A stretch of DNA of 64,000 nt. Source: Chryseobacterium arachidis (GTDB lineage Bacteria > Bacteroidota > Bacteroidia > Flavobacteriales > Weeksellaceae). The notes under the pieces are model-generated. The model saw only the letters and a list, made by a program, of their open reading frames with translations. It did no database searches and was not told the DNA's origin. Of the stretch, positions 1 to 16,178 are shown piece after piece. The position numbers and the translations under genes are program-made. The stretch lies in the NCBI RefSeq assembly GCF_900129245.1, contig NZ_FQUT01000003.1:434001-498000 (forward strand), in the 5' to 3' direction. Numbering within the stretch: position 1 is the first letter of the stretch; each line of letters opens with the position of its first letter.

Positions 1-1
1 T

Positions 2-145
2 CAATATGTGGAACTTGTTTTTGCAGAGCTGAAACACAACAAAAATTTTAAACGCTTCATGCTTCTGGGAAAAAACAAAGTCGAAGTAGATATAGGCATA
101 CTCGCTATTGCCCATAACATGAAAAAAATCAAAAAAGCAGCCTGA
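2..145 (+). CDS. Transposase C-terminal fragment, IS1182-like (partial at window start)
   Basis: An open frame enters from the left edge and stops at TGA 143-145, giving 47 residues. The pattern (VELVFAELKHNKNFKRF, then LLGKNKV, then a long helix ending LAIAHNMKKI) is the typical end of IS1182-family DDE transposases, where the last conserved glutamate region is followed by an 'ahNl.ki' helix. The catalytic part lies outside the window, so activity cannot be judged. A strong inverted repeat begins within its last codons. Confidence 0.7.
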   Translation, partial: QYVELVFAELKHNKNFKRFMLLGKNKVEVDIGILAIAHNMKKIKKAA

Positions 146-256: not shown

Positions 257-514
257 TTATTCATTTATGAGATTAAAAAATTGTTCAAGGGTAATTTTTC
301 TTGCTTTGCAAATTCTATACAGTGTTTCAACAGGAATTCTATATGTATTATCACTCTTTATTTTTCTTACGGTACTTTCTTCTATATCGTGACTTTTAGC
401 AAACGAGTTCTGTGACTTATTTTCTTTAAGCCAAGGAATCAACCAATTTTTAGTTATATACGAACAGATTTTCTCGTTTATGTCAATCATATAACAAAAG
501 AAATATTTTGACAT
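257..514 (-). CDS. XRE-type helix-turn-helix regulator, 85 aa
   Basis: This small protein is mostly a single DNA-binding domain. Residues about 28-80 follow the Cro/C1 pattern: 'wLipWLKENKSQNSFAK' helix, 'DIEESTVRKIKSD' recognition helix, and a final helix 'ETLYRICKARKITLEQFF'. No other domain is present. It lies between the IS end and the sigma/dCas12f operon and points away from that operon. A perfect 10-bp inverted repeat sits 7 bp before its start codon, the expected place for an autoregulatory operator. Its target genes are unknown; control of the divergent sigma/dCas12f operon is a guess from position. Confidence 0.75.
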   Translation of the reverse strand: MSKYFFCYMIDINEKICSYITKNWLIPWLKENKSQNSFAKSHDIEESTVRKIKSDNTYRIPVETLYRICKARKITLEQFFNLINE

Positions 515-520
515 TGAAAT

Positions 521-542
521 ATTACGGTCGTTCGACCGTAAT
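521..542. promoter_or_regulatory. Perfect palindrome, likely operator of the XRE gene
   Basis: ATTACGGTCG (521-530) and CGACCGTAAT (533-542) are perfect reverse complements around TT. The site lies just upstream of the XRE start at 514 and about 20 bp before the plus-strand promoter at 561-592, so a bound dimer could affect both directions. Confidence 0.65.
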
Positions 543-560
543 TAAATTATTTTTATTATA

Positions 561-592
561 TTTGGAATAAATTATTTATAAAAGTAATTTTG
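561..592 (+). promoter_or_regulatory. Bacteroidota promoter for structured RNA and sigma/dCas12f operon
   Basis: TTTG at 561-564 and TAATTTTG at 585-592 match the Bacteroidota -33 (TTTG) and -7 (TAnnTTTG) elements with a 20-nt spacer. Transcription would start near 599, about 40 nt before the structured RNA. Confidence 0.65.
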
Positions 593-598
593 CGATAG

Positions 599-750
599 TT
601 CAAAGAAATATAGAAGCTATTGCTTAGATTCTCGACTGGAAAACTGGCACTTTTCAAAAAGCAACGAGAGGATAAGTAAATGTGCCCACGACTTCGGCGT
701 GGGCTCACTTATCGTTGCTTGGTATGCCAGTACCACCGGTCGGTAAGATG
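599..750 (+). ncRNA. Structured RNA upstream of sigma/dCas12f
   Basis: A stack of helices can be drawn by eye: ACTGGCA 643-649 with TGCCAGT 725-731; GCAAC 661-665 with GTTGC 714-718; GATAAGT 671-677 with ACTTATC 707-713; GCCCACG 684-690 with CGTGGGC 698-704. A small hairpin (ACCG 735-738, CGGT 741-744) follows. A good promoter ends just before it. The 12-mer CGGCGTGGGCTC (695-706) recurs exactly in the candidate guide RNA after dCas12f (2858-2869), so the two RNAs are probably related. It could be a tracr-like scaffold, a second guide RNA or a leader regulator. The 3' end is not defined; no poly-T terminator is seen before the sigma gene. Confidence 0.6.
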
Positions 751-869
751 AGTTCCACGCCTTTCTTTTGGTGAAAATATAGTGAGTGAGTAATTTTCAA
801 TGCTATAGCGAATTCATGTTATTAATCGAAGCAGTTCTTCAAGCGATAATCAGCTCAAATACACTGCTT

Positions 870-1685
870 ATGAAAAGAACAAACTCCTTACCCCGAATGC
901 TTAACGAGCATCAGCTATATGAACTGCTGAAAAAAGGCAATCCTGAATCATTAGAATATATTCATTTCCGGTACAAAAGACTCCTTTTCTGGATTGGTAA
1001 ACAAATGCTTGACGATGATTTTGTCGTGGAAACACTTGTGCAGGATACATTTCTTAAACTCTGGTTACACCGTGATTCCATCGAAACTCCAAATCATATT
1101 CTTGGCTTTTTACGGTTTGTTCTGAAAAGAGACTGCATAACTTATTTCAATACTCCAAAAAATAAATTCGCACGCTTAACAGCTTCACTTGAAAGTTTTG
1201 AAAATTATCAGGATTATCTTATCGGATATGATCCTCTACAAGACAAAGAACAGCTACTTCAGCAGGAATCCGATCAAAAAAATTTTGATGAAGTCAATAA
1301 GGTCTTAAAGGTAATAAATCCCAAAAGAAAGCATCTGATTGAGCTATGCCTTCAGTATGGCTTTAGATACAAACCTATTTCAGAAGCAATGGGAAGCAGT
1401 GTCAAAGATATCAGCAATGAGGTAAGTAGGGCAATAGATGATTTAAGAAACATCCTAAAGGAAAAAGGTAATGACAAGCCACCTATTAAATCGCAGAGAA
1501 ATGAGGCTCATCAAGATGAACTCAGCAGTCAACAAATTGAAATTTTAAACAGAAGATTTGAACAGAAATCTTCATTTGCTGTAATTGCAAGAGAACTCAA
1601 ACTTTCTGAAAAAGAAGTGCATCAAGAGTTTCTTTGTGCCTATCAATATTTACAGAATCGAAACAACTCTGAAATACCTGTTTGA
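870..1685 (+). CDS. ECF-type sigma factor paired with dCas12f, 271 aa
   Basis: Sigma-70 region 2 is seen at about residues 10-90 (LNEHQLYELLKKGNPESL, then the core-binding segment ETLVQDTFLKLWLHRDSIE) and region 4 at about 135-190 (NPKRKHLIELCLQYGFRYKPI). This is the layout of Bacteroidota extracytoplasmic-function sigma factors. Unusually, a further about 75-residue tail carries a second HTH-like segment (SSQQIEILNRRFEQKSSFAV). The frame is open from a GTG at 786, but ATG 870 or ATG 897 gives an N-terminus like other ECF factors and avoids the upstream RNA, so 870 is chosen. It ends one base before the dCas12f start, implying co-translation. No anti-sigma gene lies next to it. It probably recruits RNA polymerase to a DNA site chosen by dCas12f; this is inferred. 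Confidence 0.8.
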   Translation: MKRTNSLPRMLNEHQLYELLKKGNPESLEYIHFRYKRLLFWIGKQMLDDDFVVETLVQDTFLKLWLHRDSIETPNHILGFLRFVLKRDCITYFNTPKNKFARLTASLESFENYQDYLIGYDPLQDKEQLLQQESDQKNFDEVNKVLKVINPKRKHLIELCLQYGFRYKPISEAMGSSVKDISNEVSRAIDDLRNILKEKGNDKPPIKSQRNEAHQDELSSQQIEILNRRFEQKSSFAVIARELKLSEKEVHQEFLCAYQYLQNRNNSEIPV

Positions 1686-1686
1686 T

Positions 1687-2781
1687 ATGGAAAAATCTAC
1701 GATGACACTTACCCGAAAAATTCAGTTGTTGGTCGATGTTCCATCTGATCAAAAAAATGAAATGTGGGAAAAACTTTATCGTTATCAAAACCGTTGTTTC
1801 CGAGCGGCAAACTTAATCGCTTCCCATTTGTATGTTCAGGAAATGATTAAGGATTTTTTTTACCTTACGGAAGAAATACAGTATAAGTTAGCTGATGAAA
1901 AAAAAGATGAGATGGGAATGTTTAACCGTTCGAAAACTGGCACTACGGCACGAATGGTATTTGACCGTTTCAAAGGAGAAATCCCTACAGACATTTTGGG
2001 AAGCCTGAACAATACTATTCAATCAACGTTCTCAAAAAATAAAACCGATTATTGGCAGGGAACAAAATCATTGAGAAATTATAAAAAAGACATTCCACTC
2101 CCACTTCCTGTTAAGTGCATCAGCAAAATGAGATACGATGAAGAAATTAAAGCTTTTTGCTTCAATATGTTTGCGATACCTGTCAAAACATACTTAGGAA
2201 AAGACTACACCGATAAGCGAGTGATTATGGAACGCCTGCTAAAAAAAGAGATCAAGCTATGCACCTCACAAATCCAACTGAAAGACAGGAAAATATTCTG
2301 GCTTGCAGTTTTTGAATTTGAAAAGGAAGAACATTTTTTAAAACCTGAAATTATTGCGGAAGCTTCACTATCTCTGGAACATCCCATAGTGGCAAAAGCT
2401 AACAATGTGCGAATCAATATTGGTTCAAAAGAAGAGTTTTTGTATCGCAGGCTTTCAATTCAGGCAAGTCAAAAAAGGACTCAAGAAAGTATTGCCTACG
2501 CCCGTTCTGGAAAAGGAGCTAAACGCAAACAAAAGGCATTGTATAAAACAGAGAATTTGGAAAGCGGATACGTAAGCAATCGTCTTCATTTGTACAGCCG
2601 TAAGCTTATCGATTTCTGCATCCAGCAAAAGGCAGGCACACTTATCCTTAAAAATCAGGAAGACAAGATAGGAATTGCAAAAGAAAATGAATTTGTTCTT
2701 CGCAACTGGAATTATTATGAGTTGCAGACCAAAATAAGATACAAAGCTGAAAAAGCAGGTATTGAATTAATCATTGGATAG
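1687..2781 (+). CDS. Nuclease-dead Cas12f/TnpB-like RNA-guided protein, 364 aa
   Basis: The C-terminal third matches the RuvC part of Cas12f/TnpB: a 'RLSIQASQKRTQ...GKGAKRKQKALYK' basic segment (about 254-287), the 'NRLHLYSRKLIDFC' helix, and 'WNYYELQTKIRYKAEKAGIE' (about 340-359). The catalytic residues are gone. The RuvC-I 'G-D-G' strand reads NNVRINIG with no Asp, the RuvC-II Glu is replaced by Lys (LILKNQ, K322), and the protein stops at GIELIIG, before the zinc ribbon and RuvC-III Asp. It should therefore bind guide RNA and DNA without cutting. It starts one base after the sigma factor stop and is followed at once by a guide-like RNA. A TldR-type TnpB-derived repressor is the alternative, but the coupled sigma factor argues for gene activation. 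Confidence 0.82.
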   Translation: MEKSTMTLTRKIQLLVDVPSDQKNEMWEKLYRYQNRCFRAANLIASHLYVQEMIKDFFYLTEEIQYKLADEKKDEMGMFNRSKTGTTARMVFDRFKGEIPTDILGSLNNTIQSTFSKNKTDYWQGTKSLRNYKKDIPLPLPVKCISKMRYDEEIKAFCFNMFAIPVKTYLGKDYTDKRVIMERLLKKEIKLCTSQIQLKDRKIFWLAVFEFEKEEHFLKPEIIAEASLSLEHPIVAKANNVRINIGSKEEFLYRRLSIQASQKRTQESIAYARSGKGAKRKQKALYKTENLESGYVSNRLHLYSRKLIDFCIQQKAGTLILKNQEDKIGIAKENEFVLRNWNYYELQTKIRYKAEKAGIELIIG

Positions 2782-2782
2782 G

Positions 2783-2910
2783 AAAAAATAAGAGGGTGCT
2801 TGTACACCCGCAGGGTGAGGTCTTGAAACACTCACTAAATACTTACTGTATATACAACGGCGTGGGCTCTTATTATAATATGCAACTGAAGAATCCATCA
2901 GCAAAAAAAC
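2783..2910 (+). ncRNA. Candidate guide RNA of the sigma-dCas12f system
   Basis: The RNA begins right after the dCas12f stop. AATAAGAG (2787-2794) pairs with CTCTTATT (2867-2874) and closes a multi-hairpin fold containing GGGTG/CACCC (2794-2798/2805-2809) and GTGAG/CTCAC (2815-2819/2831-2835). The scaffold then ends ATAATATGCAAC (2875-2886). A GCAAC end is also found on some Cas12f repeats just before the spacer. The predicted guide starts at 2887 (TGAAGAATCCATCAGC...). The 12-mer CGGCGTGGGCTC (2858-2869) is shared with the upstream RNA. The exact 3' end and guide length are unknown. I found no obvious match to this guide in the window by eye. Confidence 0.65.
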
Positions 2911-2935
2911 AAGATGCTTTAAATTTATTAGACAT

Positions 2936-4132
2936 CTACATCAAAAACTTTTTAACTGACAAAATATTTTCGTGATTTAAAACAAAATGACGTTTTTCAC
3001 CATTTCTTAAGAGACAATAAGCTTCTATATAACAGTGTAAATCACTAAGGGTTTCTGATTTAGATTTTTGAGCCGTCGTCAATGTTACTTTTGTAAAAGA
3101 TTTATTAAAAGCAATAACATCAATAACGTAAATTATTCTATCAGTTATTTTGTTCATTTTGTCTTTATAGACAATCTTATAAAAATTATTCTTTTTAAAT
3201 GTAGATGGCATCAACTGTTTAAAAACTCTTTGTTGATTTATACCAATAAGTTCACCTGAAAACACATCTTCGTTCTGTACTTCTTTTATCGCTGAAATAT
3301 TATCCTTTGTTAATATCAAATTGTTGATTTTTTGAGTGAAAACATTCCTATACACAAACTCGTAATAATACGTATTAAAAGAAATATATAATAGCTCAAC
3401 AACATCTTGTACTTCATAAACTTTGTCTTTTATAGTACTTTCGGGAAACAGATATAAATTTTCTTTATCAAAAGAAAACTCGCTGTTTGAAATATCATAT
3501 TCTTCAACACTCTTTAGTACATTCAATGGTAAAATCTCTTCTGAAAACACTTGCTTAGCAGAATTATACCACTTACATTTCAACAGGATTTGTGAGCGTA
3601 ATTTTGTGCCAGTAACAGTGTCAAAAACCTTTTTGTTTTCATTTGGCAAAACTTCTAAGACTGTTAAAATAGGTGGTACAAAATCTAGATTTGCCGTGAT
3701 TTTTGTTTTAATATTCTCGGTTTTTTCGTAATTGGATTTTAATTTTTTAAGTTCGAAATCTACCGATGTTAGAATATATTTCTTATTAATATATTTTTGA
3801 ACGTCAGTTAGACCTTTTGTATCAGCCTCAGAATCGTTATGCCTGTTTTCTTCAATAAGTCTTAGTTCAATCTCTTTAAACCATTTTCTTTCAAATAAGC
3901 ACGTTTTTGTGTTGAAAAAAATACAGTTATATTGAACATCTTTTTTGCCAGTTTGTTCATTAAAATTCTTTGCATTACTAATTTCGAAAACGACAAGGAT
4001 TGGGGGCGTATATTCAGATTTAGCTTTAACAATCAATTCAGAAATAGAATTAAGAAAAGGGTTTGTTATATATGTAACTAAGTCCCCCAATTGATAAAGG
4101 GGCTGATTTAATTTTGCTGATTTTTGTTCCAA
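2936..4132 (-). CDS. 398-aa protein with duplicated N-terminal domain and WYL-like tail
   Basis: I do not recognise a named family. Two related halves are visible: 'TPPILVVFEI...TGKKDVQYNCIFF' (about 42-75) and 'VPPILTVLEV...TGTKLRSQILLKCKW' (about 150-190), each followed by a 'F.E..' segment, indicating an internal duplication. The last 30 residues (IEAYCLLRNGEKRHFVLNHE) resemble the end of WYL domains, which sense ligands or nucleic acid in many defence regulators. It diverges from the reverse transcriptase across a palindromic promoter, so it may regulate or assist that system. No membrane segment or signal peptide is seen. The WYL assignment is tentative. Confidence 0.6.
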   Translation of the reverse strand: MEQKSAKLNQPLYQLGDLVTYITNPFLNSISELIVKAKSEYTPPILVVFEISNAKNFNEQTGKKDVQYNCIFFNTKTCLFERKWFKEIELRLIEENRHNDSEADTKGLTDVQKYINKKYILTSVDFELKKLKSNYEKTENIKTKITANLDFVPPILTVLEVLPNENKKVFDTVTGTKLRSQILLKCKWYNSAKQVFSEEILPLNVLKSVEEYDISNSEFSFDKENLYLFPESTIKDKVYEVQDVVELLYISFNTYYYEFVYRNVFTQKINNLILTKDNISAIKEVQNEDVFSGELIGINQQRVFKQLMPSTFKKNNFYKIVYKDKMNKITDRIIYVIDVIAFNKSFTKVTLTTAQKSKSETLSDLHCYIEAYCLLRNGEKRHFVLNHENILSVKKFLM

Positions 4133-4144
4133 GTTATTAATTTT

Positions 4145-4172
4145 ATTACAAATATATAATTATATTTGTAAT
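4145..4172. promoter_or_regulatory. 28-bp palindromic divergent promoter/operator
   Basis: ATTACAAATATA (4145-4156) and TATATTTGTAAT (4161-4172) are perfect reverse complements around TAAT. Each arm contains TATATTTG, the -7 box (4161-4168 on plus, 4149-4156 on minus). Plus-strand transcripts would start near 4175, at the first base-paired segment of the RT-associated RNA; minus-strand transcripts near 4142, 10 nt before the 398-aa gene. Confidence 0.65.
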
Positions 4173-4173
4173 G

Positions 4174-4530
4174 CTTACTTCCGAAGGAGGATTTTTACAA
4201 CTAGCTAGGATAGAAGAATTTTAATTAATCATTAAAATTTTACTTACCGTAAGAAGACGGTACAGGACTGTAATTTACTAATCAGCAGCATCAACCCTGT
4301 TAGGGGGCAAGGCAACAAGCCTGTCAGTTCTGCCGATAGAAGAATTGTTTCAAACCATAAAGGTAGTGATTTCAGATTAATTTCTGTCATATCTATTGAT
4401 TTAGATGTTATTTTACTATAAAGGTTAAACAAGTATTTAGGAAAAATAAACAATGACTCAGGATTGGGTACTTATCCGAAAATTTATGTATGTAAATGCC
4501 ATATCCTCTATTGTAAATTTCAGAAGTAAG
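4174..4530 (+). ncRNA. Structured non-coding RNA upstream of the reverse transcriptase
   Basis: The about 360-nt gap before the RT contains no convincing gene but much structure. Its two ends pair (CTTACTTCCG 4174-4183 with CAGAAGTAAG 4521-4530, 9 of 10). Inside are AATTTTAAT/ATTAAAATT (about 4218-4240), TACCGT/ACGGTA (4245-4250/4257-4262), and small CCCT/AGGG and GGC/GCC hairpins near 4295-4325. A -7 box ends six bases before the first paired base. Some defence RTs (DRT2, DRT9) use an upstream RNA of this size as template, so this is the likely template or cofactor RNA. Confidence 0.6.
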
Positions 4531-4537
4531 TTTTTTT

Positions 4538-6166
4538 ATGATCAAAAATAAGCCCGACTGGCTAAAAAGTAAAGGATATATCCATATTACCCCCTCGTTA
4601 TCTGTAGAAAAAGATTGGAGAGTCTATGAACAGAAAATTACTAATAAAAAGTATATTGAAAAATATGCCTTTTTTCCTTTGATGCACGATTCTATTAGCG
4701 AGAGAAAATATAAAAAATATGATAATAGCAAACATTTAAACACCAATAAATCAGGTCGAACACATTGTTTTAAGATAAGAAAAGGGAAAAGCAAACAAAC
4801 GATTAAATCACGGCCTATTCATTATGCTAGCCATTTTGATTCCCTCATTTATAGTTATTATGGAAATATTTTAAATTCAAAATATTTAGACGTAATAAAA
4901 GAAGATCCTGAACTTGATAAAAGTATAATCGCTTATCGGAAAATTAATTTAGAAAATCAAAATAAGGGCAAAAGTACAATTCATTTTGCCAAGGAAGCAT
5001 TTGATGAAATTGAAAGTCGTTCACATCAAAAAAATGTAGCTGCATTAACATTTGATATTGAAAATTTTTTTTCTGGATTAGATCACAAAATACTATATAG
5101 TAAATGGTGTGAAATAATCAAAGAGCAAAATCTTCCGGACGACCATTATAAGATATTTAGAGCTTGTACAAATTTCAGTTACATACTAAGGGATAACCTT
5201 CGAAAAGAATATTATCCTGGATCTAGGAGATCCGGATTTGATGAGAAAAAACTTCATTTGATAAGAAAAGCAAAGGGATACAAATGTTTTTTTAAAGATG
5301 TAAAAGAATTGAGGGAAGAAATAAAGAACGGTAATCTTAAAGTTTATAAAAATCCATTTACTAAGAAGCTTGATAATGGGAAAGTTGTTAAAATCGGCAT
5401 ACCTCAAGGTCTTCCATTGAGCGCTGTACTAGCCAATATTTATCTACTAGATTTTGATAGGAATATTATTAAAGAGATTGTTCGAAAATATAGAGGATAT
5501 TATAGAAGATATTCTGATGATTTATTAATAATTTGTTCTTCCGACGATGTTGATAACATAAAACAGTTTGTATTAACTGAGATTCTAAAATATGGCTTGA
5601 AGATAAGCTCTCATAAAACTGAGGAGTTTTTGTTTGAAAATCTAGTTTATAATAAGAATTTTGACAAAAGACTTACATCAGTTAAAATTGAAAATAATCA
5701 AAGAAGAATTGCAAAACCTCTTATTTATTTAGGATTTGAATACAGAGGATTTAGTACAAGTATAAAATCAACAAACCTTTCAAAATATTATAGAAGACTT
5801 ATATATATAGTTAAGAGGAGAGCTAAAAGGGCGTCCAAAAATATAACTCCTGAAAGCAAAAAAGCGATTTATAAACATCAAATAAAGAAGTTATATAATG
5901 CTCCACTAAAAAACATTGATAGCGACTCTAAAGAATTAAAGCAAAAATTCAGAATGAGATATCGGTTTGTTAAAAACGAATTGGGTGAATACGATTTGGA
6001 ACCTGTAAAAATGCCAATTAAAAAACAGTCAAATTATATTTCCTATTTGAAAAGATGTGATCGAATTTTTAATAGAAATAAAAGTAACTCATTCTTGAAG
6101 CAGGTTAGAAAAAGAAAAAATATTTTAAACCACGCCATTAAGAAACATTTGAATAAAAATTTTTAG
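4538..6166 (+). CDS. Defence-associated reverse transcriptase (UG/DRT type), 542 aa
   Basis: Reverse-transcriptase motifs are clear: FDIENFF (about 172-178, motif A Asp), IPQGLPLS (288-295, motif B), YSDD (325-328, motif C catalytic pair), and YLGFEYRG (397-404, motif D/E region). Before motif A, 'KSRPIHYASHFDSLIYSYY' (90-108) is typical of the UG/DRT group rather than group II introns. There is no maturase or endonuclease domain, and the about 130 C-terminal residues are very basic (many K/R), suiting RNA binding. An about 360-nt structured RNA lies immediately upstream, as in DRT2 and DRT9. The exact subtype cannot be fixed by eye. Expected role: anti-phage cDNA synthesis. Confidence 0.8.
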   Translation: MIKNKPDWLKSKGYIHITPSLSVEKDWRVYEQKITNKKYIEKYAFFPLMHDSISERKYKKYDNSKHLNTNKSGRTHCFKIRKGKSKQTIKSRPIHYASHFDSLIYSYYGNILNSKYLDVIKEDPELDKSIIAYRKINLENQNKGKSTIHFAKEAFDEIESRSHQKNVAALTFDIENFFSGLDHKILYSKWCEIIKEQNLPDDHYKIFRACTNFSYILRDNLRKEYYPGSRRSGFDEKKLHLIRKAKGYKCFFKDVKELREEIKNGNLKVYKNPFTKKLDNGKVVKIGIPQGLPLSAVLANIYLLDFDRNIIKEIVRKYRGYYRRYSDDLLIICSSDDVDNIKQFVLTEILKYGLKISSHKTEEFLFENLVYNKNFDKRLTSVKIENNQRRIAKPLIYLGFEYRGFSTSIKSTNLSKYYRRLIYIVKRRAKRASKNITPESKKAIYKHQIKKLYNAPLKNIDSDSKELKQKFRMRYRFVKNELGEYDLEPVKMPIKKQSNYISYLKRCDRIFNRNKSNSFLKQVRKRKNILNHAIKKHLNKNF

Positions 6167-6205
6167 CTTAACTAATTGTTAGACATAAATTTGTAGATAA
6201 AACTA

Positions 6206-7369
6206 TCAACGATTTTTTTTTCTCTTTCTCTTTTTTTGATTTTCTTCTGGAACGATATCCTGATAGCTATTATTACTTCCAAACTTCAATAGTGAGAATA
6301 GCCTTACACCTCTATCAGAATCTGTAAAGATTTCATTGACAGCAGTAAAAGGAATATTATTTTCCTGACATACCTTTTGTGCAATCTTCCCCATTTCTGA
6401 TATTAGTATTTGATTTTCTGTCCTATCAATATTAGGATATCTATATCTTTCAAATTTGATATCTCTTTCAAGAATATTGGTGACAGAATCTAAATATTTT
6501 TTCCTTTCTGAAGCAAAAACATTTGGCTCAGTCAATAGCACAGAATATTTATTTTTGAATGATTGAACTTCTTTATTTAAGCTCTCAACTTTTGTTCTGA
6601 GTTCTATAATTTGCTTGGACTTACATTCCAATTCTGTTTTATTTCTTTCAATAATACTTCTGTAACTTCGGAATGCTTTTTCATAATTCGCAACTGTTTT
6701 ATCAGTATTGAGCCTTTTAAAACCTAGAAAATCATTTTCCTTTACAATCAGTTGTTGGGATTTTTCTGAACTTATCTCAGATTTCATTATGTCAAACCTT
6801 TCTTCCAAAACTTTGAGATCTTCTTCTTTCTGTTGAATCTTAAACTCAATAGCATCCAATCTTCCTCTAGATCCAGAAATCCCTCGTTCCATATTCAGGC
6901 ATTCAGCTGTGAGATCCTGCATCTTTGAATAATGGAAGGATTGGTGTTTGAGTGTTTTACCGGTATCCAAATCTTGCCAGTCAGCTACTAAATGAGCGTG
7001 ATAATTCGGTTTCCATTCTTTCGTATCTTTATCAGTATGACCTTCGTCTTTATGAATGGCGATCTGAAAAACACGAATTTTCAATTCTTCTTCCAGTCTC
7101 TTGGCTAAGTTTTGAAGTTCCAACATCGTTGTGTTTTCTTTGATAACAACAACAGCTTCCCGAACCGGCATTGCATTCTTCTGCAATTTCCTTCCGGACT
7201 TTTCTTTGCAATATGCTTCGATATTTTGGATTCGTTGAGCTATTTTCTGCTCCATCCAATATTCATTCTTTGGCGTCAAATCTTTACGGATATAATCAAA
7301 AGTTTTTTTTCTGAAATTATGAGTTTCAGAATCCAATTTAACTGCTTTGAAATTAATTGAAGTCTTCAT
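6206..7369 (-). CDS. MobV-like relaxase / mobilisation protein, 387 aa
   Basis: The N-terminal half carries the relaxase histidine motifs: IHKDEGH (about 105-111) and NYHAHLV (122-128), the HxDExxH...HxH arrangement of MobV/Pre enzymes that nick oriT. Residues about 170-295 form a long coiled coil, and the C-terminus is very basic (KKRKRKKNR). It is the last gene of the minus-strand mobilisation block. A nested palindrome at 7545-7615, just upstream of its start, is a good oriT candidate. It probably nicks and pilots the island during mobilisation by a helper conjugation system. Confidence 0.8.
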   Translation of the reverse strand: MKTSINFKAVKLDSETHNFRKKTFDYIRKDLTPKNEYWMEQKIAQRIQNIEAYCKEKSGRKLQKNAMPVREAVVVIKENTTMLELQNLAKRLEEELKIRVFQIAIHKDEGHTDKDTKEWKPNYHAHLVADWQDLDTGKTLKHQSFHYSKMQDLTAECLNMERGISGSRGRLDAIEFKIQQKEEDLKVLEERFDIMKSEISSEKSQQLIVKENDFLGFKRLNTDKTVANYEKAFRSYRSIIERNKTELECKSKQIIELRTKVESLNKEVQSFKNKYSVLLTEPNVFASERKKYLDSVTNILERDIKFERYRYPNIDRTENQILISEMGKIAQKVCQENNIPFTAVNEIFTDSDRGVRLFSLLKFGSNNSYQDIVPEENQKKRKRKKNR

Positions 7370-7646
7370 TAGTTTTCATCTTTAAAGTTTGTGCTATATG
7401 TTGCCAATCAAAACTGTTGTGTAAAAATTATACAGCAATTAATTTTACCTGTGCATTTTTTACGCACCTTTGTTAATAGCCCTGCGTATTTTTGTACAGG
7501 TTGTTTCCCGACAATCTTATGTTATCTTACTCAAGTGAAAGCCTCGCAGAGCGTATTTGAAACTTTGTTGGGAGGAACGACCTTCAAAGTTGCGAATGCG
7601 CTCCTAACTTCTGCGGGTAGTTGGTAAAAACATACAGCAAGCTTTA
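7370..7646. other. Non-coding gap between relaxase and primase
   Basis: Besides the nested palindrome (separate entry), this stretch has a GTGC...GCAC hairpin at about 7452-7467. A 78-codon plus-strand open frame (7391-7627) lacks family features and crosses the palindrome, so it is not called as a gene. Confidence 0.5.
7545..7615. other. Nested inverted repeats, candidate oriT
   Basis: CGCAGA (7545-7550) pairs with TCTGCG (7610-7615), GAGCG (7549-7553) with CGCTC (7599-7603), and ACTTTG (7562-7567) with CAAAGT (7585-7590). Position about 180 bp upstream of the relaxase start, with higher G+C than the surroundings, fits an origin of transfer. A long terminator-like structure is the alternative. 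Confidence 0.45.
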
Positions 7647-8630
7647 TCAACGTTTCATTTTAAAACCATTTAAATTTTTGACTTCCGGCTCCTGATTTCT
7701 TATTTGTTGTTTATCTGCTTCAGGAAATTTTTCAGATTGCTTTCCTGCCTTAAGAGCGACATCATTTTTTGTTCGATGTATCAAAAATTCGTTGAGATCT
7801 TTGTGATCGAAATATATTGCTGAATGATCTTTTGCTTCCGGAAAATGTTTTATGATCACAGACTTACTTTTAATTCCTGCATTATCGTTATCCAGAAAAA
7901 GATTGATATTAGAATAGTTTTTCAAATGTTCTATGGATTTGTTTAAAAGAGCAATGGAATTCATTACGAGAATATCTCCTACGAAAGATTTCTGCATTTC
8001 GATAAAAGACAAGGCATCCATAAAGCCTTCAAAAACTGCTACACCTTTGATATTTTTAACTTCAACATTTGATATGTCCTGTAAACCACTATTGAGATTA
8101 ATTATTGAAATATCCTTTTTCAACAATGAACCTTTGTAAAATGAATTACGAAGCTCAAAGCCTCTGGATAAATTTTCAAAGCCAATTGCGTAGAGTTTCT
8201 TTTCTCCGACTGTAAATCGTATTTCCTTTATGTAGTTGTATATTTTTGAGGTCAATCCTCGTCCGTACAAATATTGTTTCAGGTTTGGATTTTGGAGATC
8301 CATTATTTCATCTATTCTGTAATTTGGTTCATACTTTTTGATCTGTGGTTGCTGATGAAAAGAAGAAAAATTTTGTTTTTGCGCCCAGTTCAGAACTTCA
8401 TTAACAGAAGCGTTCAAAAATTTTTTCATAAAGTCGGTATTGTTACCGCCGACACCTTCTGAGTGAAGATACCAGGCATTAATTCTCTTATCCCATTTGA
8501 AAGAGGCTTGGGATTCGCTGGCAAAGGGGTTGAGATACCAAGCTTCTTTTTCATTTTGTTTCGTTGGAAGGTGTCCGAGAGAAAGGAGGACTTCTTCCAA
8601 CGATATGCTGTTGAATTGTTTGCAGTTCAT
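7647..8630 (-). CDS. TOPRIM-domain primase, mobile-element type, 327 aa
   Basis: The N-terminal part resembles the primase zinc-finger module (SFKWDKRINAWYLHSEGVGG, about 43-62) but lacks the usual CHC2 cysteines. A TOPRIM domain follows at about 195-270: VAVFEGFMDAL gives the catalytic Glu (about 201) and NLFLDNDNAG the DxD (about 247-249). This arrangement is common in Bacteroidota mobilisable elements, beside a DUF5906 helicase and a Mob gene as here. It probably lays primers for replication of the transferred strand. The tail after about 295 is low-complexity and probably flexible. Confidence 0.78.
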   Translation of the reverse strand: MNCKQFNSISLEEVLLSLGHLPTKQNEKEAWYLNPFASESQASFKWDKRINAWYLHSEGVGGNNTDFMKKFLNASVNEVLNWAQKQNFSSFHQQPQIKKYEPNYRIDEIMDLQNPNLKQYLYGRGLTSKIYNYIKEIRFTVGEKKLYAIGFENLSRGFELRNSFYKGSLLKKDISIINLNSGLQDISNVEVKNIKGVAVFEGFMDALSFIEMQKSFVGDILVMNSIALLNKSIEHLKNYSNINLFLDNDNAGIKSKSVIIKHFPEAKDHSAIYFDHKDLNEFLIHRTKNDVALKAGKQSEKFPEADKQQIRNQEPEVKNLNGFKMKR

Positions 8631-8721
8631 TTTTGTAATTTTTAAAGTTTCTTAGCAGTAAATAGTAGGTGTCCTGTCAGTTCAGGCGGACAAGTTTAGT
8701 TTTGACTAATTTTTGATGAAT

Positions 8722-8854
8722 TGATGAGAAAGTCATATAAAAAAACTGAATAACAACACCTTAAAATCTCATCAAATTCTCATCACCTCATCAAAGTGGA
8801 AATATTCTTCTCATCATCCTCTCATCAAAAATCAGGGTTTAAAAATTTGATGAG
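8722..8854. repeat. Iteron-like CTCATCA repeats, candidate replication origin
   Basis: Five direct copies of CTCATCA (8768-8774, 8779-8785, 8787-8793, 8810-8816, 8821-8827) and two inverted copies TGATGAG (8722-8728, 8848-8854) fall within 133 bp between the primase and the primase-helicase. Spacing is 8-23 bp. Such clusters are typical of replication-initiator binding sites. Confidence 0.55.
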
Positions 8855-8898
8855 GATTTTGATGACACGTAACAAATTGATTTTATTTTTATTATCAA

Positions 8899-10137
8899 TT
8901 AATTCATCATTTCATCAAATTTTTTAAGAATAAAATTCCTTTCTATTGTAAAATATCGTCCTGTTTTGTTCTGTTGAAAAAAGCTTAAACCATAATCGAG
9001 GTCGTATTTGATATAGGACAAAGAATTACTTTGAGGTTCAAGTTTCCAGTTTTCTTTCAGTATTTTCCGGACATCATTAACTGTCCAATATTGCTTGCTG
9101 AACATCTTACCAAGCATATTGAAAATATCCTGAGGAATACAATGGAGCTTGCTGTCTTCTGTACTTTCAAAAAACTCATATAAAAGCTCGATGATTTTCG
9201 ATTCAAGTTTGTTATTATTTTTCCAAACCAGTTTCTGAAGAGCTTTTGTTCTGATCTGTGATTCTGTGAACCACATCCTTGTCTCCTTACGACTGTGGAA
9301 TGGTCTTTGAATTAAGTATCGAAGAAAATACGGGATCTCTTTGTTGAGATTTTTTAGAAATTCGGTGTTTTCGCTTTTGATCGATTTTACTTTGATGATC
9401 CAAAATCTGATCTCATTTTCATCGATCTGAATAAAATTATCTTCATTATTTGAACAGAGAATAAATTTGCCAAAGAATTCGACTTCTTCGCGGTCTTTTC
9501 CCTTTGCCTCCTTTTTATCTTTGTCGGTCGTAGAAAGATATTTTAAGCGTTCCGTGATCTCTTTTTTGTCAAAGAATACTTCGTCGATAGCCACTATCAG
9601 CATCGAAGTCCAATCTGAATTAAATTGACTGCTGAATGAATCTCCTTTGATGTAGGTCATATTTAATCCAAAAATGGATTTCAGCCATTTAATAAAAGTA
9701 GATTTTCCAGTAGATCTTTCTTTACTTACCAAACAGAGAATCGGAAGTATCTGTGTTGGATGTTCAAGCAATATCTTTATGTAATCTAAACCTAGCTCTA
9801 ATTGCTCTCCGAAAATATGTTCCATAAATTTTAGTGAGAATGGAATTTTGTTTTCTAAAGCTTCAGCGCTTATATTTTCACTGATTGGTTTATAGGGAAT
9901 CTCATTGTACATATTGTAGAATCCGTCGATGATCTGCTTATAGTCCAGATGAGAAGGAATACAGCAGAAGCCATCATACTTTGAAACTTTTGAAACGTAG
10001 ATTTTTCCGTGGTCAGTAATGATAGTTTCGCGGTTCCAACGCACTAAAATTGAGATTTTGTCTCCGGAGATCAATGGTTTCTCGATAATTTTATAATAGG
10101 TTGTGCCTACTCTGAGATATGGGATTTTTTCGGTCAT
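8899..10137 (-). CDS. DUF5906-type primase-helicase / SF3-like ATPase, 412 aa
   Basis: An ATPase core is visible: Walker A SKERSTGKST (about 138-147) and Walker B MLIVAIDEVFF (about 179-189), then a sensor-like 'FILCSNNEDNFI' (about 226-237) and an arginine-finger-like 'EIRFWIIKV'. This is the pattern of primase-helicase (DUF5906) proteins of Bacteroidota mobile elements, related to SF3 helicases. The C-terminal about 100 residues look like a winged-helix DNA-binding domain. It lies directly downstream of an excisionase-like gene and next to iteron-like repeats. Expected role: unwinding and replication initiation of the excised element. Confidence 0.8.
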   Translation of the reverse strand: MTEKIPYLRVGTTYYKIIEKPLISGDKISILVRWNRETIITDHGKIYVSKVSKYDGFCCIPSHLDYKQIIDGFYNMYNEIPYKPISENISAEALENKIPFSLKFMEHIFGEQLELGLDYIKILLEHPTQILPILCLVSKERSTGKSTFIKWLKSIFGLNMTYIKGDSFSSQFNSDWTSMLIVAIDEVFFDKKEITERLKYLSTTDKDKKEAKGKDREEVEFFGKFILCSNNEDNFIQIDENEIRFWIIKVKSIKSENTEFLKNLNKEIPYFLRYLIQRPFHSRKETRMWFTESQIRTKALQKLVWKNNNKLESKIIELLYEFFESTEDSKLHCIPQDIFNMLGKMFSKQYWTVNDVRKILKENWKLEPQSNSLSYIKYDLDYGLSFFQQNKTGRYFTIERNFILKKFDEMMN

Positions 10138-10152
10138 ATTTTTAAGGTTTGA

Positions 10153-10172
10153 TTCTGTACAGAAGTACAGAA
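10153..10172. promoter_or_regulatory. TTCTGTAC palindrome upstream of the DUF5906 gene
   Basis: TTCTGTAC (10153-10160) and GTACAGAA (10165-10172) form a perfect 8-bp inverted repeat with a 4-bp spacer, 16 bp before the DUF5906 start. A third half-site, TTCTGTAC, lies at 10213-10220 inside the end of the neighbouring gene. This looks like a repressor or excisionase binding site. Confidence 0.5.
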
Positions 10173-10207
10173 AGGTGAATTAGAATGCTTGATAAATAAA
10201 GTCTTAT

Positions 10208-10486
10208 CTATCTTCTGTACTTAAGCGATTTGACTTCGCTTAAAGCATCCATCAGATCAAAATGTTTGACCCTGTAGAATCTTCCTATTTGTTCCGCTTT
10301 GATGTTACCTTTTAAAATGTGTGAGCGTACGGTCTGGTAATCAAGTTTAAGAATTTCTGAACACTCTTTGATAGAGTATAGTTTCTTTTTTAACTCAATT
10401 TCAGGTTCTTTTTTGAGAGAATAGAGTAAGTCTTTTACTTCCCCTAGTTCGTCGAGAATGGTTTGGAATGGATTTGTTGTCTGCAT
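10208..10486 (-). CDS. Excisionase-like helix-turn-helix protein, 92 aa
   Basis: After a short acidic/basic helix (1-35), residues about 38-90 form a MerR/excisionase-type winged HTH: 'YSIKECSEILKLDYQTVRSHI' followed by 'GNIKAEQIGRFYRVKHFDLM'. This family (helix-turn-helix domain 17) commonly precedes the primase-helicase gene in Bacteroidota mobile elements. It may act as a recombination directionality factor or as regulator of the replication genes. Inverted repeats at 10513-10545 lie upstream of its start. Confidence 0.75.
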   Translation of the reverse strand: MQTTNPFQTILDELGEVKDLLYSLKKEPEIELKKKLYSIKECSEILKLDYQTVRSHILKGNIKAEQIGRFYRVKHFDLMDALSEVKSLKYRR

Positions 10487-10512
10487 AATCTTTGATATTT
10501 ATTTGCAGACAA

Positions 10513-10545
10513 AATTGTATGATTGGAATAACTAATGATACAATT
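10513..10545. promoter_or_regulatory. Inverted repeat upstream of the excisionase-like gene
   Basis: AATTGTAT (10513-10520) and ATACAATT (10538-10545) are perfect reverse complements separated by 17 bp, 27 bp upstream of the start at 10486. Possible operator. The rest of the gap to 10731 shows nothing I can assign. Confidence 0.35.
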
Positions 10546-10731
10546 CTACTCAATTGCGTAAAGTTTGATAATTGAAATTTAGTTATATATAAATTATTGG
10601 AGTAGGCATATTGCTCCTCGGTAATTTGAAGATCAAAAAAAATTTTCCAACCTTTGTAGAATTGATATCGTGAAGTAATGTCTCTGTAATTAAAACGAAG
10701 GGATATTGTATACTGGATTTTTATTTATTTC

Positions 10732-11199
10732 TCATCTGCATTTTTCACATACTCCGTCAGAAATATATTCGTCACCAGATAATCCACATCTTGAGCATTT
10801 TAAATTTATCAAATCACAATTCGATTCAATTATTTTCTGTAAAATTATGTCATTAGTATCAATGTAACATTCAAAACTTCCGTGATAATTTTTAGCAGTT
10901 AAAGGGATTGATAGATTCCACCCGTTTTCTATTAATTCATTCATCATTTTTCGAATATCATCTGCCCAGCCAGGATATGATCTAGAGAATTTCTCAACAA
11001 TTTTTTCTTTGAAGAATTTCTCAGTATATATATCAAAAGACAATTTTCTTCCTTCTAAAATTTTTTCAAATCCAGAAATTGCCCAGTTGTGATATTCCCA
11101 ACGAGAGGCAGTTACGTTCATAATTAATTCTTCTGTTGGAGCATTTAAATGATCTTTAATCACACTTTGCATTGCTAAATTAAAATCAACTTGATTCAT
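10732..11199 (-). CDS. Unknown 155-aa protein with C-terminal zinc ribbon
   Basis: I do not recognise the family. The last 22 residues (LKCSRCGLSGDEYISDGVCEKC...) hold two CxxC pairs 14-15 residues apart, a zinc-ribbon arrangement. The body is mixed alpha/beta with an acidic middle. The ribbon suggests nucleic-acid or protein binding. It lies between the replication block and the next unknown gene, with an 82-bp gap, on the same strand. It may be part of a cargo (possibly defence) unit with the genes at 11282 and 12142, but nothing proves this. Confidence 0.6.
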   Translation of the reverse strand: MNQVDFNLAMQSVIKDHLNAPTEELIMNVTASRWEYHNWAISGFEKILEGRKLSFDIYTEKFFKEKIVEKFSRSYPGWADDIRKMMNELIENGWNLSIPLTAKNYHGSFECYIDTNDIILQKIIESNCDLINLKCSRCGLSGDEYISDGVCEKCR

Positions 11200-11281
11200 T
11201 GTTACGGATTCAATTTTTTATATCGGGTTTAAAATTTCTGCTATTTATTTAAAAATTAATTTAACTCTAACAGCTATACAG

Positions 11282-12016
11282 TCAATACTCTATATTAAGT
11301 AACTTCGATAATTCTTTGTAGATATTTTCTTCAAACTCATTTGGTTTTACAGTAATTGCTCTTGAAAATGTTCCTTTGTCAAAAGTAGTATTATATTCAT
11401 TTTCCATAGCCTCAATAATTGTGGTATCCTGAAAATCGGGGTTGATGATATGATTGTCCTTCAAGAATCGATGTATTCTTATGAATGAAGATTTCTGATC
11501 TACCAGCAGGTTATGATTTTCATCGATGAATTTTTTGTCTTTTAAAAAAGCGAGGAAAATTTTTGAACTGTTATCACCAATCATAATATCAGATAAACTA
11601 ATTTCTCTATTTATTTTATGTTTTAAGGCGAAATATAGAAAAAGTGTAGTTTCGGCACCGTTTAAAAAATTGCCCTGCAATTTCATCAGGTTACTTGAAC
11701 TTAACAGGCTGTTTGATTCTTTTTTATATTGATCCAAACAGTATTGGATTTTTTCTTCAAAATTGTGATTTCTTGATTCATCAATATCTTTGAAATGAAA
11801 ACTGAAGAAATTGTCTAACTTTTCATATCTAATCAAAAATTCATTTCTCAACTTTTCATCGAGAATAATTTTAGAGGATTTTTGTTGCGCTTTTTCAATT
11901 CTACTTCGCAAACGTTCGTGAATTTTTGGCCTTCTAATCCATAAATATATCATCATTGGATAGCCTACAAATTCTTCCCAAAAATTCCAACGTCCATAAA
12001 GTTTTTTTTGATCCAT
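11282..12016 (-). CDS. Unknown 244-aa, mostly helical protein
   Basis: No family recognised. The N-terminal 35 residues are aromatic and partly hydrophobic (FWEEFVGYPMMIYLWIRR), which could be a membrane-associated helix but has many charges nearby. The rest is predicted helical and charged, with a helix-turn-helix-like end (TFSRAITVKPNEFEENIYKE). A 3' integrase remnant lies directly upstream of its start (12032-12094). It has no close partner except the neighbouring unknown 155-aa gene. Confidence 0.55.
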   Translation of the reverse strand: MDQKKLYGRWNFWEEFVGYPMMIYLWIRRPKIHERLRSRIEKAQQKSSKIILDEKLRNEFLIRYEKLDNFFSFHFKDIDESRNHNFEEKIQYCLDQYKKESNSLLSSSNLMKLQGNFLNGAETTLFLYFALKHKINREISLSDIMIGDNSSKIFLAFLKDKKFIDENHNLLVDQKSSFIRIHRFLKDNHIINPDFQDTTIIEAMENEYNTTFDKGTFSRAITVKPNEFEENIYKELSKLLNIEY

Positions 12017-12031
12017 AATACAAAGTAATGA

Positions 12032-12094
12032 TTATTTGAAAACTTCATTCATATAGTTATCTCATCATCCTCACCTGGTCTGTTATAATTGTAG
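12032..12094 (-). pseudogene. Remnant of a second integrase 3' end
   Basis: This 63-bp stretch closely resembles the last codons of the integrase gene ending at 14937 (the codons for RPSEDDKINYMNEVFK and stop). Here a one-base deletion breaks the frame (GAGATAACTATATG instead of AAGATCAACTATATG). Similarity ends abruptly on both sides. It is a vestige of another integrase copy, pointing to an earlier insertion or recombination event that placed the 12142-14721 gene here. Confidence 0.65.
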
Positions 12095-12141
12095 TAAAAA
12101 TTTTAACGTACTCTAACTTACCCTACATTATATTTGCTAAA

Positions 12142-14721: not shown

Positions 14722-14936
14722 TGTTTTTTATATAAAAATAGAATTTTTTTTATTTCTTAGTTAGTTTTTGTAGGTAGAAAAACTGTTTCACAAAGTTAAA
14801 TTTCGCTAATAATATTATCTCTACTTAGTTATATTATTAATTTCAAGAGAATATCTTTAACCTTTACCGATAAAACTAATTCTTTCTATATGGAGTGTTT
14901 TATAAATGCTCAGTAGACCACAATCTAAATTACTAC

Positions 14937-16178
14937 TTATTTAAAAACTTCATTCATATAGTTGATCTTATCATCTTCACTTGGTCTGTAATAAGCATTA
15001 AAGACTTCCAAGCTAGTATGACCAGTGTAACTCATAATAACTTTATCCGGAACTCTTTTGTTTTTCATTATGGTGATGAAACTTCTCCTTGCAGTATGTG
15101 AGGAAATTCTTGTCCAAAACTCAGCTTTTTGGTCTACCAACTCATCACCATACTTCATAGTCTTCTTTATTTCATCAGTAAATTCTAGCTTTTTAAAAAC
15201 CTCCTTAATATAGTCATTCATCTTCTGATTTGTAATACTAGGCAATTTATAATCATACTTTTCGAGTATTGATTTAGAAATACTGTTTAAAGGAATTGCT
15301 AAGTTTTTAGATTTACTTTTTAAATCGATAACTCGTATGAAATTACCATCAACATCACTTCTTGAAATCGTGCTGTAATTGCCAAATCTCATTCCTGTAG
15401 TGCATCCAAAAACAAAAAGGTCACGTACCCTTTCCAATCTTTTGTTATCACTGAAGTCATAATTGTAAATGAGCTCAACTTGTTCAAAATTTAAAGCTAT
15501 TTCATCAGTTGTGAATTTCGCAGGTTTTTTGAACGTAATAAAATTGTTATTATATGTATATTTTTTATTGAGAGCCCAGAGAAGAAAAGTTTTGAGCAGA
15601 CCGACATTTCTGTGTAATGTATTTGCAGAATGCTTTTTTTCTTCGATACAATATTTTAAAAACTTATTATAAAGTTTATCATCAAATTTTCCCAGAGTGA
15701 TCTTAACTTTACAATTGCTTTCAAAATCTTCGAGTAGATTCTTATTGCATTTGTAACGCTTTAAAGTAGAGTTTGAAATCGAATTCCCAGTATAGTCATT
15801 TTCCTTCTCATCTAAAAACTCCTGATAAATTCTAAAGAAATCACTTTTAACAGTAATTTTTTTGAACTTTTCATCAAATCTTTGTTTAAGAATATCGACT
15901 GTAAGTTCTTCATTTATGTTCTTATATCGATTAACAATCTCTGTAAAGAAACTGCTGTATCGATCTAACTGCATCTTAACGCTTCGATGAATTTCTGCCT
16001 TTTTTGTTCTTCCGTTTAGGTCATTTGGTTGTCTACCTTCAAAATCCCATTCGCTTGGTTTTATTTTCTCGCCCGTAGAATAGATGAAATTCTTATTTTC
16101 ATTGTTGAAAAAAGAACGGAAATAAATCAAAGATTCCTTTGTACCATTGGGTTGCTTAAGTTTAAAAGTGTAGTTCAT
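14937..16178 (-). CDS. Tyrosine integrase of the island, 413 aa
   Basis: The arrangement is arm-binding N-domain (about 1-60), SAM-like core-binding domain (about 110-215) and catalytic domain (about 230-413). Catalytic residues are visible: Arg in TGMRFGN (about 264), HTARR (361-365), His in YTGHTSLEVF (about 387) and Tyr in NAYYRP (396/397). It lies at the right edge of the island, reading inward from the attachment site at about 16310. This is the Bacteroidota integrase type found in mobilisable elements. The 63-bp copy of its end at 12032-12094 shows a second integrase was once nearby. Confidence 0.88.
   Translation of the reverse strand: MNYTFKLKQPNGTKESLIYFRSFFNNENKNFIYSTGEKIKPSEWDFEGRQPNDLNGRTKKAEIHRSVKMQLDRYSSFFTEIVNRYKNINEELTVDILKQRFDEKFKKITVKSDFFRIYQEFLDEKENDYTGNSISNSTLKRYKCNKNLLEDFESNCKVKITLGKFDDKLYNKFLKYCIEEKKHSANTLHRNVGLLKTFLLWALNKKYTYNNNFITFKKPAKFTTDEIALNFEQVELIYNYDFSDNKRLERVRDLFVFGCTTGMRFGNYSTISRSDVDGNFIRVIDLKSKSKNLAIPLNSISKSILEKYDYKLPSITNQKMNDYIKEVFKKLEFTDEIKKTMKYGDELVDQKAEFWTRISSHTARRSFITIMKNKRVPDKVIMSYTGHTSLEVFNAYYRPSEDDKINYMNEVFK

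What the first reader, a model, noticed from the sequence alone, without database searches (positions are those of the whole stretch)
870..2935. Sigma factor - nuclease-dead Cas12f - guide RNA operon: probable RNA-guided transcription system
An ECF sigma factor gene is followed after one base by a Cas12f/TnpB-like gene whose nuclease is dead, and a guide-like RNA follows directly. An RNA-guided DNA binder that cannot cut, tightly coupled to a sigma factor, suggests a complex that carries RNA polymerase to a guide-chosen site and starts transcription there. I recall a recent report of such dCas12f-sigmaE systems in Bacteroidota (from memory, to be verified). Here it sits on a mobile island beside a defence reverse transcriptase, a setting worth noting in itself.
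Basis: partly seen in the sequence, partly recalled or inferred. Interest (0 to 1): 0.97.

Follow-up and report, generated by a model that had tools for sequence, protein, structure and literature searches.

The report
RNA-guided gene switch on mobile island
This is very probably a natural RNA-guided gene activator (a sigma factor paired with a cutting-dead Cas12f and a short guide RNA), a new member of a recently described kind, and its guide matches a folded RNA leader found in front of its own genes and of a nutrient-uptake operon of the host.

Summary
Window 870-1685 encodes an ECF sigma factor, 1687-2781 a nuclease-dead Cas12f one base later, and a guide RNA follows. Both proteins match, nearly end to end, chains deposited as nuclease-deactivated Cas12f and RpoE (PDB 9n9c/9n9q). 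This is a new member of the dCas12f-sigmaE kind.

Tandem scaffolds in relatives put the scaffold end at 2858; the guide begins GGCGTGGGCTC. That word plus an A/T occurs exactly three times in the host genome: guide RNA, the operon's own 5' leader, and a second leader upstream of a SusCD operon (about 0.2 expected). The leader is a covarying RNA of about 155 nt without an Rfam match, in 227 of 320 family genomes against 76 of 320 for dCas12f. The guide equals the strand shared by two competing leader helices. In 8 of 20 loci outside the family longer guides match their own leader after a G; other guides do not. DNA binding, transcription start and any leader bypass are inferred, not shown.

The parts
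559..592 (+). Promoter-like -33/-7 pair (TTTG 561-564, TAATTTTG 585-592; Bacteroidota type) just 5' of the leader
   Evidence: Read from sequence; a loose pattern of this kind precedes the leader in 51 of 56 sigma-E loci and 31 of 40 leader-only loci tested, no shuffled control; TAnnTTTG -7 consensus as described in a passage of PMC9723704
613..767 (+). Structured 5' leader RNA (five nested helices), no Rfam family
   Evidence: Covariation; R1 hit 1.1e-38 (the window is in the model's seed); Rfam negative
684..690 (+). Leader helix P5, 5' strand GCCCACG, pairs with the middle strand
   Evidence: 99.8% of cells paired in 64 sequences (helix 6)
696..706 (+). Leader middle strand GGCGTGGGCTC = predicted dCas12f target (identical to the guide)
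750..761 (+). Leader 3' strand GAGTTCCACGCC, competing partner of the middle strand, followed by a T-rich stretch
   Evidence: 97.6% of cells paired, 14 cells changed on both sides (0 of 500 shuffles) in 4 pairs (6 of 500)
870..1685 (+). ECF-type sigma factor (sigma-E of the dCas12f pair) with an extra C-terminal region-4-like HTH
1687..2781 (+). Nuclease-dead Cas12f (dCas12f), truncated in the TNB domain
2792..2858 (+). Guide RNA scaffold, ends at ...GTATATACAAC
   Evidence: Conserved in relatives; boundary from tandem scaffolds with different guides
2859..2870 (+). Guide GGCGTGGGCTCT (base 1 may coincide with the TAM G); in many relatives a T-run follows
257..16178 (.). Mobile island: HTH gene, this system, DRT2-type RT with partner, relaxase-like gene, Toprim primase, VapE-like helicase, tyrosine integrase (14937-16178 -); ends not mapped

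Best explanation
The locus is a sigma-E/dCas12f RNA-guided transcription operon carried as cargo on a mobile island. dCas12f binds the short guide RNA transcribed from the 3' end of the operon. The guide (GGCGTGGGCTC, or GCGTGGGCTC after a G TAM) directs the complex to the DNA of a conserved leader element, both in the operon's own 5' region (window 696-706) and upstream of a host SusC/SusD/S9-peptidase operon (contig C12). The attached sigma-E factor brings RNA polymerase there and starts transcription downstream, giving self-activation and switching on of nutrient uptake genes. Shown here by sequence: the parts, their order, dead-nuclease features, the guide boundary, the two matching sites in the host genome, and that both sites point towards the gene behind them. 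Inferred: binding, recruitment, the start site, and the direction of the effect.
For: Both proteins match the chains of one solved dCas12f/RpoE set. Exactly three GGCGTGGGCTCW sites in 4.95 Mb: the guide RNA, own leader, SusCD leader; 0.17-0.23 copies of GGCGTGGGCTC expected. Of 88 loci with a leader, 85 gave a guide; in 45 of 85 a guide matches the own leader for 8 bases or more from the guide's start, against 0.4% of 4250 shuffled leaders and 0 of 85 reverse-complement leaders. In six genomes outside the family whose guides are of this type, GGCGTGGGCTCTCTTAT (up to 2 mismatches) hits 27 sites against 2 for the reversed pattern; 7 are the guide RNA and the 20 others lie in leader elements found by the RNA model (17 strong, 3 weak), 8 of them the leaders of sigma-E operons. 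A guide in another register (AGCTCACTTATCG, L110 in G215) still fits a leader of that genome (L245) after a G.
Against: In 40 of 85 loci no guide reaches 8 matching bases with the own leader: in one group the leader reads GGCGTGAG against a GGCGTGGG guide, and other guides (Allomuricauda taeanensis TTGTGGGATATACGC; AAAAATCC..., CCATGTG...) do not fit it at all. The TTGTGGGATATACGC guide has no second exact site in its genome; up to 2 mismatches there are 7 sites against 5 for the reversed control. In the host genome, with one mismatch allowed, the guide word is no commoner than its reversed control (8 against 7). The exact match in the window is only 11-12 bases. 13 of 81 near relatives lack the leader. 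Leaders occur in 155 genomes without a dCas12f match, so the leader has a function of its own. Nothing was expressed or bound.
Confidence: 0.74

Rival explanations
1. The guide works on RNA. The short RNA carries a copy of the leader's middle strand, pairs with the leader's 5' or 3' strand, and tips the leader between its two folds. dCas12f would stabilise or deliver it, and the sigma factor would act elsewhere.
For: The guide equals the strand that can pair with either GCYCACG or CCACGCC, and both helices are conserved.
Against: Close protein relatives are deposited as nuclease-deactivated Cas12f, in one entry with RpoE. In the 8 matching loci outside the family the site follows a G, which fits a DNA TAM. 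An RNA decoy needs no sigma factor.
Confidence: 0.1
2. GGCGTGGGCTC is the invariant 3' end of the scaffold followed by a terminator T-run. There is no functional guide at this locus, or the true guide is encoded elsewhere.
For: 65 of 98 parsed guides in 88 loci start with GGCGTGGG and a T-run usually follows.
Against: Tandem scaffolds end at ACAAC and continue with different words. Other genera and families have a longer matching guide or a different one at the same place. The window itself has no clean T-run.
Confidence: 0.1
3. The shared word is a relic: the guide was once captured from the leader, and today the SusCD operon is controlled by its leader alone; dCas12f-sigma matters only for its own operon or for unknown sites.
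For: Leaders with the same word stand before SusCD in genomes without a dCas12f match.
Against: The matching word persists across genera, and the 20 non-gRNA matches in six genomes outside the family are all leaders.
Confidence: 0.1

Closest known systems
dCas12f-sigmaE RNA-guided transcription system of Flagellimonas (Allomuricauda) taeanensis (PDB 9n9c, 9n9m, 9n9o, 9n9q; preprint recalled, not held)
   Same: Both proteins along nearly full length of the PDB chains (1.4e-158; 4e-82); in the A. taeanensis locus L322 the same kind of scaffold, a sigma match beside dCas12f and a leader RNA hit about 1.1 kb upstream of dCas12f. That L322 is the solved system rests on the species and on recall.
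   Different: 65% identity to the L322 protein; different guide (GGCGTGGGCTC instead of TTGTGGGATATACGC); here the guide matches the leader, there it does not; carried on a mobile island with a DRT2-type RT.
TldR (TnpB-derived, phage-borne RNA-guided regulators of host flagellin; PMC13418256, abstract start in a listing and passages seen)
   Same: Nuclease-dead, RNA-guided, carried by a mobile element and aimed at a host surface-protein gene.
   Different: Derived from TnpB, represses, no sigma partner (the last recalled); here Cas12f-like with a sigma factor and predicted to activate.
Cas12f proteins with solved structures (PDB 9nzo, 7wju, 8dzj; their activity is recalled)
   Same: Homologous by sequence (5.8e-38, 1.1e-17, 1.3e-17).
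   Different: First catalytic Asp replaced by Ser227 (against 9nzo) and the C-terminal part of the nuclease domain missing.

Membership tests
dCas12f-sigmaE RNA-guided transcription | Cas12f homologue with inactivated nuclease | tested here: met
   the Glu position is ambiguous, the first Asp and the C-terminal part are lost
dCas12f-sigmaE RNA-guided transcription | Adjacent ECF sigma factor of the paired kind | tested here: met
   one base between the genes; RpoE of 9n9q at 4e-82
dCas12f-sigmaE RNA-guided transcription | Guide RNA encoded next to dCas12f | tested here: met
   conserved scaffold and guide boundary by comparison; expression not tested
dCas12f-sigmaE RNA-guided transcription | Target preceded by 5'-G (TAM; feature recalled) | tested here: inconclusive
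   fits in 8 of 20 loci outside the family, where GCGTGGG... follows G in the own leader; in the window the site reads C|GGCGTGGG, so G is the TAM only if the guide starts at base 2860
dCas12f-sigmaE RNA-guided transcription | Recruits RNA polymerase and starts transcription at a fixed distance from the R-loop (feature recalled) | not testable with these tools
   needs ChIP-seq and 5'-end mapping
TldR (TnpB-like nuclease-dead repressors) | TnpB origin, no sigma partner (the latter recalled) | tested here: not met
   NCBIfam guided_TnpB 45.4 bits, cutoff 100; PADLOC Cas12f 2.7e-52; sigma gene adjacent
Any Rfam family (for the leader) | Match at curated or lax threshold | tested here: not met
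   no match at gathering score; 2 and 5 lax matches, all far below gathering scores

The most novel reading that the evidence does not exclude
A mobile-element-borne RNA-guided activator overrides a host RNA switch. The guide is a copy of the strand that an undescribed, two-state leader RNA uses to flip between its folds. By starting transcription inside the leader, downstream of that strand, dCas12f-sigma would make mRNA that lacks the sensing half, so SusCD (and in other families genes near HEPN, RelA/SpoT or ECF-sigma ORFs) would be expressed regardless of the leader's signal.
Probability: 0.3. Interest if true: 0.85.

Novelty: new member of a known kind. Interest (0 to 1): 0.62.

Why it matters
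RNA-guided transcription by sigma/dCas12f is recent (recalled); what these systems are for is the open question. The guide-target pairing found here gives a concrete, testable host regulon and suggests that mobile elements carry programmable activators of host nutrient-uptake genes, the mirror image of phage TldR repressors. It also exposes a widespread structured leader RNA (227 of 320 family genomes) with two competing helices and no Rfam match.

Tried and rejected
Chance open frames: rejected. Plain TnpB or TldR: rejected. A longer guide in 2868-2990: a whole-genome BLAST gave only chance-level second hits (best E 0.15). Leader as a known Rfam RNA: Flavo-1, which a passage of PMC9723704 names as a common Flavobacteriaceae motif, is not among the lax matches. 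Guides of the other Kaistella-type tandem scaffolds (TGAGCGGTTTTC, GGGGCGGTTTTC): a pattern search gave 38 hits in four genomes, guide RNAs included, against 19 for the reversed control, so no targets could be named. The A. taeanensis guide had no second exact site. Folding the guide RNA or the leader alone was weak evidence (z -1.39 and -2.14). No structure prediction was run, because a close solved relative exists. The association of leader and dCas12f across genomes (72 of 76 against 155 of 244, lists typed by hand into) is partly circular, since the cassette brings its own leader. Paper searches for the leader or for this system listed nothing that describes them (listings only, apart from passages of PMC9723704 and PMC13418256); no bioRxiv collection is held, so absence from print is not claimed.

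Full report
OBSERVATION. The sigma ORF (870-1685 +) is followed after one base by the dCas12f ORF (1687-2781 +). The sigma factor has ECF regions 2 and 4 and a second region-4-like stretch near its C terminus. The second protein is Cas12f by PADLOC (2.7e-52). It matches PDB 9n9c 'Nuclease-deactivated Cas12f' over its whole length (1.4e-158), and residues 17-264 of the sigma factor match chain C 'RpoE' of 9n9q (4e-82). The first RuvC Asp of the Cas12f effector 9nzo aligns with Ser227, invariant in an alignment of 8 dCas12f sequences, the window's included, and the protein stops early in the TNB domain. The Glu position depends on the alignment. The nuclease therefore looks dead by two losses; that these positions are catalytic is recalled.

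WHERE THE GUIDE IS. One copy was found in the host genome (G000, 4.95 Mb). In the family, 76 of 320 genomes have a match, fragments included. I fetched 80 loci and added the window (81 in all). All 81 have a scaffold hit (the profile was built from these loci). Five loci have two to four scaffolds in tandem (L060, L087, L098, L100, L110). In these the scaffold ends at ...ACAAC and different words follow. Hence the guide starts at 2859 in the window: GGCGTGGGCTC, then TTATTATAATATGC. In many relatives a T-run follows the same word. The guide is thus about 11-12 nt, not the whole stretch up to 2910.

WHAT IT MATCHES. GGCGTGGGCTCW occurs exactly three times in the host genome: in the guide RNA, in the operon's own leader (window 696-707) and at C12:438002-438013. 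About 0.2 copies of GGCGTGGGCTC are expected from base or dinucleotide composition. With one mismatch allowed the pattern (8 hits) is no commoner than its reversed control (7), so only the exact matches carry weight. The C12 site was found independently, because a 145-base leader stretch is 79% identical there. It lies upstream of SusC (999 aa), SusD (458 aa) and a third gene that matches the S9-type peptidase gene of a related operon; Pfam was run on that related operon (L190: TonB plug/barrel, SusD, Peptidase_S9), not on the host's own.

THE LEADER IS A STRUCTURED RNA. In 19 leaders, 33 pairs in five nested helices are 97.3% paired, with 10 pairs changed on both sides (0 of 500 shuffles). 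In 64 wider matches 95.3% of cells are paired with 212 double-changed cells (that alignment was fitted to this structure). A competing helix that pairs the same middle strand with GAGTTCCACGCC is 97.6% paired with 14 double-changed cells (0 of 500 shuffles) in 4 pairs (6 of 500), although the alignment was not fitted to it (one slid version also reached 4 pairs, with 5 cells). In the smaller set the competing helix varied too little to tell (24 of 500 shuffles reached it). So the middle strand has two conserved, mutually exclusive partners. A loose promoter-like pattern precedes the leader in 51 of 56 sigma-E loci and 31 of 40 leader-only loci, and the target begins about 100 bases after it (no shuffled control). 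Rfam has no such family.

HOW COMMON, AND BEFORE WHAT. The RNA model finds the leader in 227 of 320 family genomes, up to 8 copies each. I fetched 40 high-scoring copies away from dCas12f (taken from the top of a capped list, so close to the model's seed). All 40 carry GGCGTG[G/A]GCTC, 32 of 40 exactly the guide word. 28 of 40 precede SusC and 12 of 40 a family of about 175 aa (only the leader's strand was searched) without a Pfam match in four members tested or an NCBIfam match in one. Outside this family the picture is mixed. Of 12 leader copies away from sigma-E operons in four genomes (G321, G322, G324, G325), 3 precede SusC. For the other 9 I took the first sizeable downstream ORF, not always the nearest: HEPN domain (3), ECF sigma (2), RelA/SpoT (1), AbiEi-type regulator (1), and two with only an ORF of 110-112 aa, one of which was tested and had no Pfam match.

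OTHER FAMILIES. A profile scan of named genomes kept 80 of 181 relatives. Of 25 loci outside the family by their record titles, 20 have a leader hit about 0.9-1.2 kb upstream of dCas12f; two of the five misses lack upstream sequence, three do not. In 8 of the 20 the guide fits the own leader directly after a G, exactly over 16 bases in Yeosuana marina (L344) and with one to three mismatches in 16 in the others; L345 gave no guide, and guides of Allomuricauda taeanensis, Echinicola and others do not fit. In six genomes with this guide type GGCGTGGGCTCTCTTAT (up to 2 mismatches) gave 27 sites against 2 for the reversed control. Seven are the guide RNA, and the 20 others lie in leader elements, 17 strong and 3 weak hits.

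STRENGTH OF THE GUIDE-LEADER LINK. Of 88 loci with a leader, 85 gave a guide by my parser, which also picks up a few false ones (for instance a second one in the window). In 45 of 85 a guide matches the own leader for at least 8 bases from the guide's start; shuffled leaders do so in 0.4% of 4250 trials and reverse-complement leaders in 0 of 85. In 40 of 85 none does. The loci are related, so these are not independent events; 21 of 67 distinct guide/leader combinations match over at least 9 bases.

MECHANISM. From the family (recalled) and the anatomy: sigma-E/dCas12f binds the leader DNA, recruits RNA polymerase and starts transcription downstream. A start inside the leader would yield mRNA without the 5' half that forms either helix, so the gene would escape the leader's own control. 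This last step is a proposal. The guide could also act on leader RNA.

SETTING. The island carries a DRT2-type RT with its partner, a relaxase-like protein, a Toprim primase, a VapE-like helicase and a tyrosine integrase. Of 81 loci, 42 (the window included) have at least one homologue of five of these mobility genes within the fetched flanks, but only one other has the RT. Mobile carriage is therefore common and the RT is incidental.

VERDICT. A new member of a known kind with a strong candidate for its natural target. The leader RNA and its link to the guide are the part worth a second look. Whether preprints or subscription papers already report it could not be checked.

Noticed in passing
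window 4538-6166 + and 2936-4132 -: DRT2-type antiviral reverse transcriptase (PADLOC Drt2 1.6e-121; NCBIfam Drt2 290 bits, below its cutoff of 390) with an RTasWYL-YodC partner (2.9e-91) beside the dCas12f operon.
   Followed up: partly
L211:776-1300 + and 11 other leader-only loci: A family of about 175 aa follows 12 of 40 leader-only copies and has no Pfam match (four members tested) and no NCBIfam match (one tested).
   Followed up: partly
L060, L087, L098, L100, L110, L256, L257: Tandem guide-RNA scaffolds with different guides after one dCas12f gene; pieces of dCas12f are duplicated between scaffolds in L098/L100.
   Followed up: partly
L380, L381, L386 (HEPN), L384 (RelA/SpoT), L385 (AbiEi-type regulator), L382 and L389 (ECF sigma): Outside the family, leader copies with the guide-matching strand stand upstream of ORFs of defence, stress or regulator type.
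   Followed up: partly
L251-L255: In genus g10 the leader lies about 2.7-3.7 kb upstream of dCas12f, with no same-strand ORF of 80 aa or more in between except sigma.
   Followed up: no
L043, L044, L045, L062, L072, L081 and 7 other loci: 13 of 81 near relatives lack the leader; in several of them a HTH-like ORF seems to start right after the guide RNA (read by eye).
   Followed up: no
G000:C12:400942-401088 - (L392): A third, weak leader-like hit in the host genome (E 2.5e-5) in which the guide-matching strand was not found.
   Followed up: partly
window 1-143: End of an ORF that looks like the 3' end of an insertion-sequence transposase (read by eye).
   Followed up: no
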